From: Nitrosovibrio sp. Nv4
Lineage (GTDB): Bacteria; Pseudomonadota; Alphaproteobacteria; Acetobacterales; Acetobacteraceae
Direction: 5' to 3'
NCBI GenBank assembly: GCA_943330455.2
Contig: CALQHT020000025.1
Span: forward strand, 1 to 36,611
DNA length: 36,611 bases
Part shown: piece after piece, positions 27,454 through 36,505 of the stretch
How the letters are laid out: each line of letters opens with the position of its first letter
Position numbering within the stretch: position 1 is the first letter of the stretch
The notes under the pieces: model-generated
Database searches by the model: none
What the model was told of the DNA's origin: nothing
The model's input: the letters and a program-made list of their open reading frames with translations, nothing else
Made by a program: the position numbers and the translations under genes

Positions 27454-27858
27454 CTACGCGGGCGTCAGCGAGACGTTGGCAACGCCCTGACGGATGATGC
27501 CCAGGCGTTCGGCGGCGCCGACCGACAGATCGACGACCCGGCGGTTGGAATACAGCCGATCGGTGATCACCACGATCACCGAGCGGCTTGTCCCGGTTAC
27601 GGTCACCCGCACTTTCGTGCCGAATGGCAGCCAGGGATGGGCGGCCGTCAGCGCCTTCTGGTCGAAGCGGGCGCCGCTGGCGGTGCGCTTGCCGTGATGC
27701 GCCCGTCCATAATAGGAAGCATATCCTGTTTCGCCCGACCAGTTGGGCGAATTGCGGGTACTGGGAGGAGCATTGTCCTCCGCATGGGCGCGACCGGGGT
27801 GCAATGCGAGCAGAACGCCCGCCGCTATCCCTGCCATCGCCAAGAACTGTCGGCTCAT
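27454..27858 (-). CDS. RlpA-like double-psi beta-barrel protein
   Basis: A 134-residue exported protein. A Sec signal peptide (cleavage near AHA, residue 26) is followed by an RlpA-type barrel: GYASYYGRAHHGKRTASG, FDQKALTAAHPWLPFGTKVR, VIVVITDR and the VVDLSVGAAERLGI strand. RlpA proteins cut naked glycan strands of peptidoglycan at the septum; the conserved histidine (in AAH) and aspartate (in TDR) of that fold are present. There is no SPOR domain, so targeting to the septum may differ, and there is no lipobox cysteine. The ATG giving MSRQFL was chosen because the signal peptide begins there; upstream codons of this frame lack family character. Confidence 0.88.
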   Translation of the reverse strand: MSRQFLAMAGIAAGVLLALHPGRAHAEDNAPPSTRNSPNWSGETGYASYYGRAHHGKRTASGARFDQKALTAAHPWLPFGTKVRVTVTGTSRSVIVVITDRLYSNRRVVDLSVGAAERLGIIRQGVANVSLTPA

Positions 27859-31497: not shown

Positions 31498-32949
31498 CTA
31501 CACCCGCACCATCCGGTTCCACGCATCCAACGCCGCGATCTTGTAGGCCTCAGCCAGTGTCGGATAGTTAAACGTATTCTCAATGAAATAATCCAACGTG
31601 CCCTTCAGGTTCAGCACCGCCTGGCCGATATGCACCAACTCCGTTGCTCCTTCCCCAACGATGTGCACGCCAAGCAGCCGGCCGGTCTTGATGGAAAAGA
31701 TCATCTTCATCATGCCAGCGCTCAACCCCATGATATGCCCGCGCGACGTCTCCCGGAACCGCGCGATCCCGCATTCGTAAGGAATGCCGCGCCGGCGCAC
31801 CTCCTCCTCGGTCATACCCACCGTGGACATCTCGGGCACCGAGTAGATCCCGTATGGAAAGAATTCTGGCGCCGGCGGCAATGGCATGCCGAAAGCGTGG
31901 CAGGCGGCGATCCGCCCCTGCTCCATCGACGTGGACGCCAGGCTGGGGAACCCAATCGCATCGCCCGCCGAGTAGATATGCGGCACCGAAGTCTGGAACG
32001 TATGCGCATCGACACCGAGCCGCCCCCGGTGATCCGGCGTCAGCCCGCAAGACGCGATGTTGAGCACATCCGTCGCGCCAACCCGCCCGGTCGCATACAA
32101 TAACATGTCGGAGCGGATGCGCCGCCCGCTCTCCAGCACCGTCACCGGCCGGTCATTCTCGAACTCGATGGAAACAACCTTGGAGCCCAGGCGGATGGAC
32201 ATGCCGCGGTCGCGCAACTGGTGGGTGAAGTCCTCGATCAATTCGCGGTCGATGAAGTCGAGGAAGCTCTCGCGCGCATCGACCAAGGTCACGGCCACGT
32301 CCAAGGCACTGAAAATAGTCGCGTATTCTACCCCGATGACGCCGGCGCCAATGACTGTCAGGCTGCGAGGTGGGTGGTCGATTTCCACGATCTCATCGCT
32401 GTCCACGACGGTGCGGCCGTTGAACGGCACGTCGGCCGGCCGATGCGGGCGAGTGCCAACCGCGATCAGGATCTTCTCGCCGCGGAACACGCGCGGGCCT
32501 TCGCCGTCGGTCAGGACTTCGATATGGTGCGGGTCCAGGAAGCGGGCGAAGCCGATCGTGGTCTTCACCGCGTTGCGGGCAAACTGATGCTCCAGCACAT
32601 CGACCTCATGATCGAGCGTCATGTGCAGCCGCATCATTAAGTCCTTCGCATCAATATCCTTCTTCACCCGATACGCTCGGCCGTAAAACCCACGCTCCCG
32701 GTAACCGGTCAGGTTCAGCACGGTCTCGCGCAGGGTTTTGGAGGGGATGGTGCCGGTATGGACGGATACCCCGCCGACCCTGCGGCCTTTCTCGATCACC
32801 AGTACGGATTTGCCGAGCTTGCCGGCCTGGATGGCGGCGCGTCGGCCGGCGGGGCCGGAGCCGATGATGATGATGTCGTAGCAGGCCAGAACCTGATGGT
32901 CGCTGGCGACGAATTCGGGCAGGAGGCGAGGGAGCGGGCCGTCTTGCAT
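31498..32949 (-). CDS. sthA: Soluble pyridine nucleotide transhydrogenase
   Basis: A 483-residue flavoprotein of the disulfide-reductase fold that moves hydride between NADPH and NADH. The FAD motif IIIIGSGPAGRRAA follows a 25-residue N-terminal extension. The NAD(P) motif GAGVIGVEYA is in mid-protein, and the second FAD motif is HIYSAGDAIG. At the place of the redox cysteines it reads GGVSVHTGTIPSKTLRE: both cysteines are absent, which separates it from lipoamide dehydrogenase and mercuric reductase. The dimerisation domain ends with YPTLAEAYKIAALDA. The Si-specific transhydrogenase is normally 460-480 residues. Flanking genes are unrelated accessory genes. Confidence 0.9.
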   Translation of the reverse strand: MQDGPLPRLLPEFVASDHQVLACYDIIIIGSGPAGRRAAIQAGKLGKSVLVIEKGRRVGGVSVHTGTIPSKTLRETVLNLTGYRERGFYGRAYRVKKDIDAKDLMMRLHMTLDHEVDVLEHQFARNAVKTTIGFARFLDPHHIEVLTDGEGPRVFRGEKILIAVGTRPHRPADVPFNGRTVVDSDEIVEIDHPPRSLTVIGAGVIGVEYATIFSALDVAVTLVDARESFLDFIDRELIEDFTHQLRDRGMSIRLGSKVVSIEFENDRPVTVLESGRRIRSDMLLYATGRVGATDVLNIASCGLTPDHRGRLGVDAHTFQTSVPHIYSAGDAIGFPSLASTSMEQGRIAACHAFGMPLPPAPEFFPYGIYSVPEMSTVGMTEEEVRRRGIPYECGIARFRETSRGHIMGLSAGMMKMIFSIKTGRLLGVHIVGEGATELVHIGQAVLNLKGTLDYFIENTFNYPTLAEAYKIAALDAWNRMVRV

Positions 32950-33150: not shown

Positions 33151-34260
33151 TCACGTTTGGCTCATGTGCAGGCGGTAGCTGCTGTTTTTGCTTCCCCCTT
33201 CATTCCGGACAAGGATTCCGAGGTCGATTAATTCCTTGATATCCCGCTGGGCGGTTGGCTGCGAGCATTGCCCCATGCTAGCCCAACGCCGTGTCGTGAG
33301 GTTGCCATCGAACCCGTCCAGAACTCGGTTCAGCAGTTTCCGCTGGCGTTCGTTGAGCGGCGCATCCGCATGAAGTTGCCAGAACTCCGCTTTGCGCAGC
33401 ACGTCATTGCAGATACGGTCTGCTTCCTTCAGTGCCCGGGAGAAGCAATCGACGAACCATGCCACATAGCTCGTGATGTCTCGTTCACCCTTCTGGGTCT
33501 GCTCCAGGATGTCGTAGTAGTCGGACGTGCGATCCCGCATGATCTGGGCCGAAAGACTGTAGAAGCGCTGCTGATTTTCCTCCGATCGCGCGAGACTCAT
33601 ATCAGCGATCGAGCGGGCAATGCGGCCGTTTCCATCGTCGAATGGATGGATCGTGACGAACCACAGATGCGACAGGGCCGCGTGGATGATTCCATCGAGC
33701 GTCCGCGGTTCGTTGAAAAAGGCCAAAAATACCCGGATCTCGGCTTCCAATCGATCCGCGGGCGGCGCTTGGTAGTGCACCCGTTGACGGCCGACGGCGC
33801 CGGACACGACCTGCATCGGGCCGAGATGATCGTCGCGCCATGCCCCGATCCGGATGGGAAAGAGACCTGACCGGCCGGTCGGGAACAAGGCCGCGTGCCA
33901 TGCGAACAGCCGCTCTTGCGTCAGGGGCTCCGCATGATTGCGGCTCGCGTCGAGTGCTATGGCGGCCATACCTTCGGCCCGCCGATCCTCCGGCCCAAGG
34001 GCAAGGTGAGGTAACCCGAGGCGGCGCGCGAGCGAAGAACGCACGCTGTCGCGATTGAGCGTTTCGCCCTCTATCTCGGCGGTATTCACGGCTTCCTCGG
34101 TCATGGCGAGGAGTTCGGCTTCGAGGCGAAGATGAAAGCCGAGCTGCTCCATCCGGCCTAGGAGGCGGCCTCGCAGCAGGTTGGCGTCGCCCAGAGGACG
34201 GGCGAGGGCGTTCGCATCCCAGCGGAGGTTCGGCCAGGTTGCGTGTTCCCAGATATACAT
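33151..34260 (-). CDS. Fic-domain AMP transferase with C-terminal winged helix
   Basis: A 369-residue protein of the Fic family. The catalytic motif HPFDDGNGRIAR is at about residues 205-216 and is complete. The inhibitory helix motif is present at the N-terminus (TAEIEGE, T60-x3-E64-G65), making it a class II, self-inhibited Fic protein. About residues 300-365 form a winged-helix domain (LTTRRWASMGQCSQPTAQRD then LIDLGILVRNEGG). Such proteins attach AMP to target proteins; here the C-terminus could also bind DNA. ATG 34260 was chosen because GAGG lies five bases upstream; the GTG at 34266 lacks a site. No FicA-type partner is adjacent. Confidence 0.9.
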   Translation of the reverse strand: MYIWEHATWPNLRWDANALARPLGDANLLRGRLLGRMEQLGFHLRLEAELLAMTEEAVNTAEIEGETLNRDSVRSSLARRLGLPHLALGPEDRRAEGMAAIALDASRNHAEPLTQERLFAWHAALFPTGRSGLFPIRIGAWRDDHLGPMQVVSGAVGRQRVHYQAPPADRLEAEIRVFLAFFNEPRTLDGIIHAALSHLWFVTIHPFDDGNGRIARSIADMSLARSEENQQRFYSLSAQIMRDRTSDYYDILEQTQKGERDITSYVAWFVDCFSRALKEADRICNDVLRKAEFWQLHADAPLNERQRKLLNRVLDGFDGNLTTRRWASMGQCSQPTAQRDIKELIDLGILVRNEGGSKNSSYRLHMSQT

Positions 34261-34288
34261 ATTCACCTCATATAATGATGTGAATATG
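34258..34288. promoter_or_regulatory. 31-bp near-palindrome over the fic start, possible operator
   Basis: CATATTCAC (34258-34266) and GTGAATATG (34280-34288) are perfect nine-base arms. The inner bases also pair apart from one mismatch (34267/34279) and the centre. The left arm includes the ATG of the fic gene. On the minus strand TTGCCA (34305-34310) followed 17 bases later by ATATTC would put a -10 element inside the right arm, so a bound protein would block both promoter and ribosome-binding site. Confidence 0.55.
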
Positions 34289-34329
34289 GCCTTATTTGCA
34301 TCATTGGCAAGGCATCGGCGGCCCGACCG

Positions 34330-35637
34330 TCACCCCGCCGGGAACGCCGCCTCCATCGACCGCCGGTAACGGTAGGCCTCGTCTGTCGTATCGATCCGCA
34401 CATCGTCCCAGGTTACCGCCTGGCCGGCTGGTACGTCTCGGATCAAGGGCACGCGGTTGGCTAGGCCGATCGGCAGGCCGCCGATGCGCAGGCTTTCCGC
34501 CGCCGGGGCCAGTTTGCCCCAGACGCAGGCGCCACCCTCGCCGTCCAGGATCTCCCCCGCCCGCAGGTTTCGTTTCGCGGTGGAGACCACGTCGCCGCGG
34601 AACCCGTCGGCAACCCCTGTCGGCTCCCCGCGCAGGGCGGCGGACAGGATGGACACGTTCAGTTCCAGCCCGATTAGGTGGAACGGCCGATACAGCGCGG
34701 AAATCCGGCCGGACGGATCGGTCACCACGCCGTATTCCTGGAAGCAGCGCACGGCATAATCGTTGGGGGCCTCGAACGCGACATACACCCCCCAGCGCAG
34801 ATCGTTGGCCACCTGGCTGCCATCGCGGTGGACGGAGGATATCACCTCCACCTGGCCCGCATGGTGCAGCGCGCCGGCATTGCCCGGGCGCAGGACATCG
34901 GCCAGTTCATGGGTGCCGCAGGGTGGGAAGACCAGCCCGTCTGGCGCCGGAGTCAGACCCGTGGCGTTGGCGACGGCGGCCATCTCGATGCCGGATTTCG
35001 TGCCGTCCAGGAAGGAGTTGAACATCTGCGGGTTCATCCCGCCCAGACGCGCCTGCTCCGGGGTCAGGCCGTAGAATCCCCAGACCGTGTCAGGGGTGGA
35101 GGCGTGGTATTCCGGCATATACTTGGTGCCCTTGCCGGCAGCGATCACGCCGAAGCCGCAGGCGCGGGCCCAGTCGACGAGCTCGCAGATCAGGGCGGGC
35201 TGATCGCCATAGGCCATGGTGTAGACGGTGCCGGCCTGGGCGGCCTCGCGGGCCAGCAGCGGACCTGCGAGGACATCGGCCTCCACGTTGACCATCACGA
35301 TGTGCTTGCCTTCGCGGATCGCGCGTCTTGCGTGGGCGACCCCGGCGGGGGCGTGGCCGGTGGCTTCGACAACGACTTCCACATCGGGGGAGGCCATCAT
35401 GGCCATGGCATCATCGGTGAACCGGGTGGCCGCGATCCGTGCTTCGTCCCAACCGACCCGGCGGCAGGCCTCGCGGGCGCGGTCCGGGGCCAGGTCGGCG
35501 ATGGCGGCGACTTCCAGGCCGGGGGTGGTGGGGACCTGCGACAGGAACATGGAGCCGAATTTGCCGGCGCCGATCAGCCCGACCCGAACGGGCCGGCCGG
35601 AAGCGGCTCGCTTTTGCAGCAATCGGTAGAGGTTCAT
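34330..35637 (-). CDS. SAF-domain NAD(P)-dependent oxidoreductase
   Basis: A 435-residue enzyme with a homoserine dehydrogenase-like N-terminal Rossmann domain: VGLIGAGKFGSMFLSQV (about residues 19-35), then IADLAPDRA and VVVEATGHAPAGVAHARRAI. KGTKYMPEYHASTPD and FLDGTKSGIEMAAVANATGL are the catalytic-domain parts of this family. The C-terminus carries an SAF-like segment (AKRNLRAGEILDGEGG). Relatives are annotated as SAF-domain dehydrogenases of sugar-acid or branched-sugar catabolism; the substrate here is unknown. The ATG giving MNLYRLLQKR was chosen, since the upstream frame overlaps the divergent gene. It starts 70 bases from the divergent creatininase gene, and the pair may form one catabolic unit. 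Confidence 0.82.
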   Translation of the reverse strand: MNLYRLLQKRAASGRPVRVGLIGAGKFGSMFLSQVPTTPGLEVAAIADLAPDRAREACRRVGWDEARIAATRFTDDAMAMMASPDVEVVVEATGHAPAGVAHARRAIREGKHIVMVNVEADVLAGPLLAREAAQAGTVYTMAYGDQPALICELVDWARACGFGVIAAGKGTKYMPEYHASTPDTVWGFYGLTPEQARLGGMNPQMFNSFLDGTKSGIEMAAVANATGLTPAPDGLVFPPCGTHELADVLRPGNAGALHHAGQVEVISSVHRDGSQVANDLRWGVYVAFEAPNDYAVRCFQEYGVVTDPSGRISALYRPFHLIGLELNVSILSAALRGEPTGVADGFRGDVVSTAKRNLRAGEILDGEGGACVWGKLAPAAESLRIGGLPIGLANRVPLIRDVPAGQAVTWDDVRIDTTDEAYRYRRSMEAAFPAG

Positions 35638-35707
35638 GTGCGTGCGCCCTTCCATCGGCCCCGGTTTCGTGGCCCCATCCGCATCCGCGAACAGGGGATA
35701 CAACCGG

Positions 35708-36505
35708 ATGGCCGAGGAATTCGAATGGCGCAAGCTCCGCGCCGACCAGTTGCGTGAAAAGGCCCGCCAGGACGCCATCGTCGTCCTGCCCGTGGCATCG
35801 CTGGAGCAGCACGGCCCGCATTTGCCGGTCGAGGTGGACTCCATGTTGGGAGAGGCGGTTGCCGCCCGTACCGCCGTCAAGGTCCTGGCCATGGGCCAGC
35901 CGATTCTGGTGCTGCCCGTCCTTTGGACCGGTCTGAGCGAGCATCACATGAGCTTCGGCGGCACGATTACCCTGGACAATGCCGGGTTTGCCGCGGTGGT
36001 GGAGGGTGTCGTGCGCTCGGTTCTGCGGCACGGGTTCAAGCGGATCGTGCTGCTGAACGCGCATGGCGGGAATGAGAACGCGTTGCGGACGATAACGGAC
36101 GACCTGACGCCTCGGTATCGGGCGGCGATCGTGCAGTTCACCTATTGGTATGCCGCTGCCGTGCCGATCGCGAAGATCCTGGAGACTCAGGGCGGGCTTT
36201 CCCATGCCTGCGAGGCGGAGACGTCCATGATGATGGCGGTGCGGCCGGAACTGGTGGCGACGGATCGGATCCCTCTGGCCAAGTCCAACACGACGCCGGC
36301 GGTCGACGATCTGGTTGGCGGGGGCGTTTATCGGTGGCGCAGTATTGGCAGCCGGTCGGCATCCGGGGTGATCGGCAATCCGGAGGCGGCCAGCGCGGAG
36401 AAGGGGGAGCGGCTGTTTGACGCGATTTCCTCGGCTTTGGCGACGAAATTGTGCAATCGGGAGATGTGGGATCTGCCTTGGGAGTCGGAGCGGTTGATGG
36501 AGTGA
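35708..36505 (+). CDS. Creatininase family metal-dependent amidohydrolase
   Basis: A 265-residue protein of the creatininase/FAPy-deformylase-like fold. Metal-binding residues are visible in SLEQHGPHLPVEVD (E33, H35, D44), LLNAHGGNENAL (H119) and SHACEAETS (E169). Members hydrolyse cyclic or linear amides such as creatinine, FAPy nucleotides or mycofactocin precursors; the reaction is not predictable here. The ATG giving MAEEFEWRKL fits the family start. It is divergent from the SAF-domain dehydrogenase with 70 bases between, suggesting shared control. A multi-hairpin repeat follows its stop. Confidence 0.88.
   Translation: MAEEFEWRKLRADQLREKARQDAIVVLPVASLEQHGPHLPVEVDSMLGEAVAARTAVKVLAMGQPILVLPVLWTGLSEHHMSFGGTITLDNAGFAAVVEGVVRSVLRHGFKRIVLLNAHGGNENALRTITDDLTPRYRAAIVQFTYWYAAAVPIAKILETQGGLSHACEAETSMMMAVRPELVATDRIPLAKSNTTPAVDDLVGGGVYRWRSIGSRSASGVIGNPEAASAEKGERLFDAISSALATKLCNREMWDLPWESERLME

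What the first reader, a model, noticed from the sequence alone, without database searches (positions are those of the whole stretch)
34258..34310. Near-perfect 31-bp palindrome covering the fic start and promoter
Nine-base perfect arms plus further inner pairing cover the ribosome-binding site and ATG of the fic gene. A -10 candidate lies in the right arm with TTGCCA 17 bases upstream. The Fic protein carries a C-terminal winged helix, so it may bind this site and repress itself. A Fic enzyme that is also its own repressor would couple AMPylation state to expression.
Basis: partly seen in the sequence, partly recalled or inferred. Interest (0 to 1): 0.5.

Follow-up and report, generated by a model that had tools for sequence, protein, structure and literature searches.

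The report
Self-repressing Fic enzyme and its operator
The palindrome is part of a set of three docking sites at the front of a gene for an AMP-adding enzyme, and comparison with many relatives indicates that the enzyme itself docks there with its tail domain to turn its own gene down, as one distant relative is already known to do.

Summary
The palindrome is real (34258-34288; 13 of 14 arm pairs, 3-nt centre) and belongs to a larger operator: three half-sites of alternating direction over the promoter region, ribosome site and ATG of fic. Fic is DUF4172 + class II Fic + C-terminal winged helix; nearest solved relative CbFic2 (8CIL). Of 194 non-identical loci (window included) 172 carry paired half-sites before fic; shuffles give about 2. 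No neighbouring ORF family is shared by more than 2 of 79 loci. The half-site changes with the recognition helix: Asp at residue 337 goes with TGC (111 of 111 loci), other residues with TGA (60 of 61); the window has Pro and TGA. Residues 337 and 336 lead 336 protein columns for half-site bases 3, 5 and 6. Only about three tree changes underlie the Asp rule, so this is strong but not independent proof. Best reading: Fic binds here and represses itself. That kind is published once (CccR); the compact alternating operator and its family-wide specificity rule were not found in the held library. Coupling of AMPylation to expression is untested.

The parts
34258..34288 (-). 31-bp near-perfect palindrome (half-sites 2 and 3), covering -10 candidate, ribosome site and ATG
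34261..34270 (-). half-site 3, TGAGGTGAAT, directly before the ATG
   Evidence: largely invariant in 5 aligned loci; gap of 5 to half-site 2 is the commonest -/+ gap
34276..34285 (+). half-site 2, TGATGTGAAT, overlapping the -10 candidate
34294..34303 (-). half-site 1, TGATGCAAAT, weaker, in the -35/-10 spacer; gap of 8 to half-site 2
   Evidence: (I10); not called by the strict form
34305..34310 (-). -35 candidate TTGCCA
   Evidence: consensus match only
34283..34288 (-). -10 candidate CATATT, 16-nt spacer
   Evidence: consensus match only
33151..34260 (-). fic gene from ATG, 369 aa (GTG at 34266 is an alternative start)
34012..34257 (-). DUF4172 domain; contains inhibitory motif TAEIEG
   Evidence: (E 1.5e-30)
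33598..33927 (-). Fic domain with HPFDDGNGRIAR
   Evidence: (E 6e-14)
33169..33351 (-). C-terminal winged helix
   Evidence: model; 8cil Z 43.1 over 356 residues; Pfam HTH_DeoR below its cut-off
33223..33261 (-). recognition helix (P0001 residues 336-348), begins QPTAQRDI

Best explanation
The palindrome is the main part of a three-half-site operator for the Fic protein encoded just after it. The winged-helix tail reads half-sites of the TGAGGTGAAT type. Bound as a dimer or several dimers, Fic covers the -10 and the ribosome site/start and so represses its own transcription. Shown here: the conserved sites and spacing, their near-restriction to fic, and their covariation with the recognition helix. 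Inferred: binding, the direction (repression) and dimer binding. Untested: any link between AMPylation and DNA binding.
For: (1) Paired half-sites before fic in 172 of 194 non-identical loci, window included (139 of form TGNNNNGAWW, 33 of form TGN[GT]NNATAR); means of 20 shuffles 1.75 and 0.2; same-size stretches inside the gene 0 and 1 of 194. (2) Fixed geometry in the representatives: 72 of 90 +/- gaps are 9 bp and 59 of 78 -/+ gaps are 5 bp; the window has 8 and 5. (3) The majority base 3 of the half-sites follows residue 337: Asp-C in 111 of 111 loci, non-Asp-A in 60 of 61; of 95 loci fetched after the rule was noted (fetched), 86 have a called site and 86 of 86 agree. (4) Among 336 protein columns residue 337 ranks first for base 3 and residue 336 first for bases 5 and 6 (90 representatives); they are the first two residues of the recognition helix in the model. 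(5) In 79 loci with flanks no neighbour ORF family (fragments of 90 aa or more) is shared by more than 2. (6) In 40 genomes holding a relative, 56 of 61 places of the TGC-type dyad lie at fic (read); reversed control 0. In the own genome the window's dyad has 1 place. (7) Published precedent CccR (passages).
Against: No binding or expression was measured. The Asp rule rests on about 3 tree changes, 1 forced by starred branches; Lys336 with base 5 C holds in 15 of 16 and goes the same way in 3 of 4 independent pairs, p 0.25. 22 of 194 loci have no called pair; for some, half-sites are visible by eye and the form is too strict. L056 has Ala but 2 of 3 half-sites TGC. Counted by half-site, 5 of 382 in Asp loci and 4 of 199 in non-Asp loci break the rule. 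For bases 4, 9 and 10, which vary little, the leading columns are 326, 233 and 147, not the recognition helix; for bases 3 and 5 some columns outside the wHTH follow closely; in the short-site class (23 representatives) the helix does not lead. A strict -35/-10 form spanning a half-site is found in only 19 of 63 loci. The half-site forms were written after seeing the first loci.
Confidence: 0.87

Rival explanations
1. The palindrome works in the mRNA: a hairpin hides the ribosome site and start codon (translational control).
For: RNA of 34200-34320 folds with the hairpin; the whole stretch has z -2.44, 4 of 200 shuffles as good. The arms cover GAGG and ATG.
Against: If the predicted -10 is right the transcript starts near 34276 (inferred) and lacks the left arm; RNA from there shows no such hairpin. 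Many homologues carry further half-sites and dyads about 50-90 nt upstream of the start, in alternating direction with fixed gaps, and the letters follow the recognition helix.
Confidence: 0.05
2. Another DNA-binding protein of the cell, not Fic, binds the site.
For: Nothing here measures which protein binds.
Against: TGC-type half-sites stand before fic in named Proteobacteria and Bacteroidetes records (for example L010; L014, L022, L023) with hardly any shared neighbour; one place in the own genome; covariation with Fic's own recognition helix.
Confidence: 0.05
3. Fic binds the site but activates, or mainly sits on the DNA with little effect on transcription.
For: In some loci dyad centres lie as far as about 90 nt upstream of the start.
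Against: In the window the sites overlap the -10 candidate, the spacer and the start; CccR, with sites near -35 and -10, represses (passages).
Confidence: 0.08

Closest known systems
CccR of Yersinia pseudotuberculosis (PMC9755527, passages read)
   Same: Fic protein with C-terminal HTH domain that binds inverted repeats in its own promoter and represses itself; related fold (7xux, which I take from recall to be CccR: Z 23.4).
   Different: CccR footprint is AGATAATCAT-N26-ATGATAATCT; here half-sites sit 5 and 8-9 bp apart in an alternating array; 20% identity to 7xux; CccR is a secreted effector, which was not examined here.
CbFic2 of Coxiella burnetii, PDB 8CIL (PMC10628234, abstract and passages read)
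   Same: 42% identity, Z 43.1 over 356 residues; DUF4172 + class II Fic + wHTH.
   Different: Random DNA was used there and a specific site is left open. Its aligned residue at position 337 is not Asp, so the rule here predicts TGA-type half-sites; not looked up (referred).
SoFic / EcSofic (PMC12249575, passages read)
   Same: Class II Fic with a C-terminal domain that is a wHTH in the Shewanella structure; PADLOC SoFic model matches at E 1.3e-40. SoFic-like loci have dyads of their own, TGTATAGAAA type.
   Different: NCBIfam SoFic equivalog scores 42.1 against a cut-off of 550; other recognition helix and half-site.
phd-doc toxin-antitoxin autoregulation
   Same: Fido-fold toxin whose operon is repressed at its own operator; the same paper suggested that HTH fusions may regulate fic (PMC2686095, passages).
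   Different: Here enzyme and supposed repressor are one protein.

Membership tests
class II Fic AMP transferase | HPFxxGN[GK]RxxR motif | tested here: met
   HPFDDGNGRIAR in P0001; 184 of 194 loci
class II Fic AMP transferase | N-terminal inhibitory motif [ST]xxxE[GN] | tested here: met
   TAEIEG; 188 of 194 loci in the stretch searched, the nearest homologue L054 not among them
class II Fic AMP transferase | AMPylation/deAMPylation activity | not testable with these tools
   no assay
DUF4172-Fic-wHTH (CbFic2 type) | DUF4172, Fic and C-terminal wHTH in one chain | tested here: met
autorepressing wHTH Fic (CccR kind) | inverted-repeat site over its own promoter | tested here: met
   the promoter itself is a consensus match only
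autorepressing wHTH Fic (CccR kind) | repeats separated by 26 bp as in CccR | tested here: not met
   gaps 5 and 8 in the window; mostly 5 and 9 in the family
autorepressing wHTH Fic (CccR kind) | measured binding and repression | not testable with these tools
   no experiment
NCBIfam SoFic equivalog (NF046030) | score over the curated cut-off | tested here: not met
   42.1 of 550 bits
SoFic phage-defence system | PADLOC SoFic model; defence against phage; small AS1-like antitoxin gene downstream | tested here: inconclusive
   PADLOC E 1.3e-40; no defence test; short ORFs listed but not compared with AS1

The most novel reading that the evidence does not exclude
The operator is also the enzyme's off-switch. 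Pairing of Fic on adjacent half-sites forces the dimer that is AMPylation-off/deAMPylation-on (as random DNA is reported to do for CbFic2), and autorepression keeps the number of Fic molecules near the number of operator sites. Fic released from the operator, for example when the DNA is copied, displaced or destroyed during phage attack, becomes active: a one-gene toxin whose antitoxin is its own promoter DNA.
Probability: 0.13. Interest if true: 0.85.

Novelty: new variant of a known kind. Interest (0 to 1): 0.56.

Why it matters
It turns a single published case (CccR) into what looks like a family-wide rule: Fic enzymes with a winged-helix tail carry a cognate operator at their own start. 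It gives a readable helix-to-DNA specificity rule and a concrete DNA for proteins of the CbFic2 type, for which random DNA was used. It makes the open question of whether operator DNA controls the AMPylation/deAMPylation switch directly testable with the protein of this window.

Tried and rejected
Tried: the bare palindrome as a statistical oddity; over the whole window it is only moderately rare, so the case rests on conservation. RNA hairpin control: rejected as main reading. A regulon: the own genome has one place; of 61 places in 40 other genomes 5 are away from fic, 4 of these inside ORF fragments of over 200 aa and 1 (L210) in a stretch with only a 123-aa fragment, so they look like chance. 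One of the 56 places at fic (G146, C40) adjoins a broken fic copy. Two of the 40 genomes (G157, G901) have no place at that stringency. Covariation in the short-site class: inconclusive (n 23). Gln336/base-6 link: not significant on the tree. A strict promoter form: weak (19 of 63). My first promoter tally used the wrong gap range (9 loci) and was redone; an inverted-repeat helper was unused. SoFic-like relatives: 14 of 200 genomes matched at E 1e-60, none over the family's cut-off; 3 of the 14 loci were dropped (L219 broken frame, L224 and L225 partial); 6 of the 11 left hold a 9-bp dyad (control mean 0.18, largest 1). Rows dropped before counting: 8 partial homologues and 4 identical ones; 22 loci without called sites left out of base-3 counts. 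The split at L103 was not a fair after-the-fact test, since L103-L110 were already printed; one search is the right split. Papers PMC12894286 (passages) and PMC3482391 (passages) added nothing that I use.

Full report
What is there. The palindrome lies at 34258-34288; on the fic strand it reads CATATTCAC-A-TCAT-TAT-ATGA-G-GTGAATATG and ends with the ATG of fic. Read with its homologues it resolves into half-sites of about ten bases: TGAGGTGAAT (34261-34270, minus), TGATGTGAAT (34276-34285, plus) and a weaker TGATGCAAAT (34294-34303, minus). Gaps are 5 and 8 bp. A -35 candidate TTGCCA (34305-34310) and a -10 candidate CATATT (34283-34288) frame them. Thus half-site 1 lies in the spacer, half-site 2 over the -10, half-site 3 over the ribosome site up to the ATG. 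Residue numbers below are those of P0001, which starts two codons before the ATG.

The protein. P0001 has DUF4172 (E 1.5e-30), Fic (E 6e-14, HPFDDGNGRIAR) and a weak HTH_DeoR match below Pfam's cut-off. The inhibitory motif TAEIEG marks class II. A model from 54 sequences (mean pLDDT 92.2) shows three helices and a wing at the end; the recognition helix is ATG-numbered 334-346, that is P0001 336-348. The best solved match is 8CIL, CbFic2: Z 43.1, 1.7 A over 356 residues, 42% identity.

Is it more than chance? The bare dyad is moderately rare: 28 of 200 Markov windows hold at least one as good; locally 26 of 20,000. The decisive test is conservation. I collected homologues from genome contigs (51 loci) and, at E 1e-30, from the order (53 of 299 genomes matched), genus (10 of 33), class (53 of 385) and phylum (83 of 398), with further stretches; loci were held for only part of these matches. 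Of 206 loci, 198 were full length and 194 non-identical, the window's included. Paired half-sites stand before fic in 172 of 194; 20 shuffles gave 1.75 and 0.2 on average for the two forms, in-gene stretches 0 and 1 of 194. The forms were written after looking at the first loci, so this is not a blind test, but the contrast is large. Gaps are fixed: 72 of 90 +/- pairs have 9 bp and 59 of 78 -/+ pairs 5 bp.

Who reads it? Genes next to fic differ: in 79 loci with flanks no ORF family (fragments of 90 aa or more) is shared by more than two. The half-site letters follow the recognition helix. The rule noted, Asp with C and Ala/Pro with A at half-site base 3, holds for 171 of 172 loci with called sites, including 86 of 86 first fetched afterwards (9 more had no called site). 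The window and L054, L111, L112 have Pro and TGA; L056 has Ala, with two TGC and one TGA half-site, which looks like an intermediate. Across 90 representatives residue 337 is the most informative of 336 columns for base 3, and residue 336 for bases 5 and 6; bases 4, 9 and 10, which vary little, are led by columns outside the recognition helix. The limits are clear: on a tree of residues 4-303 (127 representatives) the Asp label and base 3 change only three times each, one of these forced by starred branches, and Lys336 with base 5 C gives 3 of 4 independent pairs. Covariation therefore agrees with direct reading but is not many independent events. In the short-site class it is inconclusive.

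How local is it? The window's dyad occurs once in the own genome at up to three mismatches. In 40 genomes of relatives the TGC-type dyad (up to 2 mismatches) has 61 places in 38 genomes; 56 lie at fic by my reading of coordinates, 5 elsewhere, 4 of them inside long ORF fragments; the reversed control found none. So it looks like a local operator rather than a regulon.

Mechanism. Fic most likely binds as dimers and blocks polymerase and perhaps ribosomes: autorepression. That step has a published precedent, CccR, with footprint, EMSA and lacZ data (passages of PMC9755527). The 2009 Fido paper had already suggested that HTH fusions may regulate fic (passage of PMC2686095). CbFic2 binds random DNA and is proposed to switch from AMPylation to deAMPylation as a DNA-induced dimer, with a specific site left open (abstract and passages of PMC10628234). 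The family operator found here is the natural candidate for such a site in proteins of this type. Whether operator binding sets the enzyme's state is untested.

Rivals. An mRNA hairpin is possible for read-through RNA but not for RNA starting at the inferred start, and does not explain distant half-sites. An unrelated regulator does not explain sharing across phyla with fic alone.

Extension. SoFic-like Fic genes (14 of 200 genomes, none over the family's cut-off), with another recognition helix, have dyads of their own: 6 of 11 usable stretches hold a 9-bp dyad against 0.18 in controls; the printed dyads contain TGTATA in 5 of the 6, and the sixth (L220) shows such a dyad by eye. Homologues lie on 342 of 72,556 plasmid records at E 1e-40 (their upstream DNA was not examined) and are patchy within the genus (10 of 33). 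I infer that gene and operator move together.

Novelty. Self-repression by a wHTH Fic is known once. I found no paper describing the compact alternating operator, its spread over the DUF4172-Fic family or the helix/half-site rule in searches of the held library, which lacks most subscription journals.

Noticed in passing
L212-L223 (SoFic-like loci): SoFic-like Fic genes have their own upstream dyads, mostly TGTATAGAAA..TTTCTATACA by eye, with helices such as VSRLTATKYL; two loci (L215, L217) show TGTTAAGAAA with VTRQTASRYL or VTRQTAARYL.
   Followed up: partly
L056 upstream of fic: A mixed operator (two TGC, one TGA half-site) with Ala at position 337, like a half-way stage of a specificity change.
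   Followed up: no
L043, L045, L046, L047, L050, L051 (Psychrobacter): Truncated or broken fic copies in one genus; half-sites are visible by eye upstream in 5 of these 6 (not L045).
   Followed up: no
27554-27588: Second dyad with 13 of 14 arm pairs (AGCCGATCGGTGAT / ATCACCGAGCGGCT); lies inside ORFs listed, so likely chance or coding.
   Followed up: partly
34330-35892 and 31498-32949 (both minus): fic sits between an SAF/dehydrogenase-like gene and a pyridine-nucleotide-disulphide oxidoreductase-like gene on the same strand (named by recall from the sequence, no search); such neighbours did not recur in more than 2 of 79 loci.
   Followed up: no
plasmid records: Homologues on 342 plasmid records, 104 of them predicted conjugative; the family looks mobile.
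   Followed up: no
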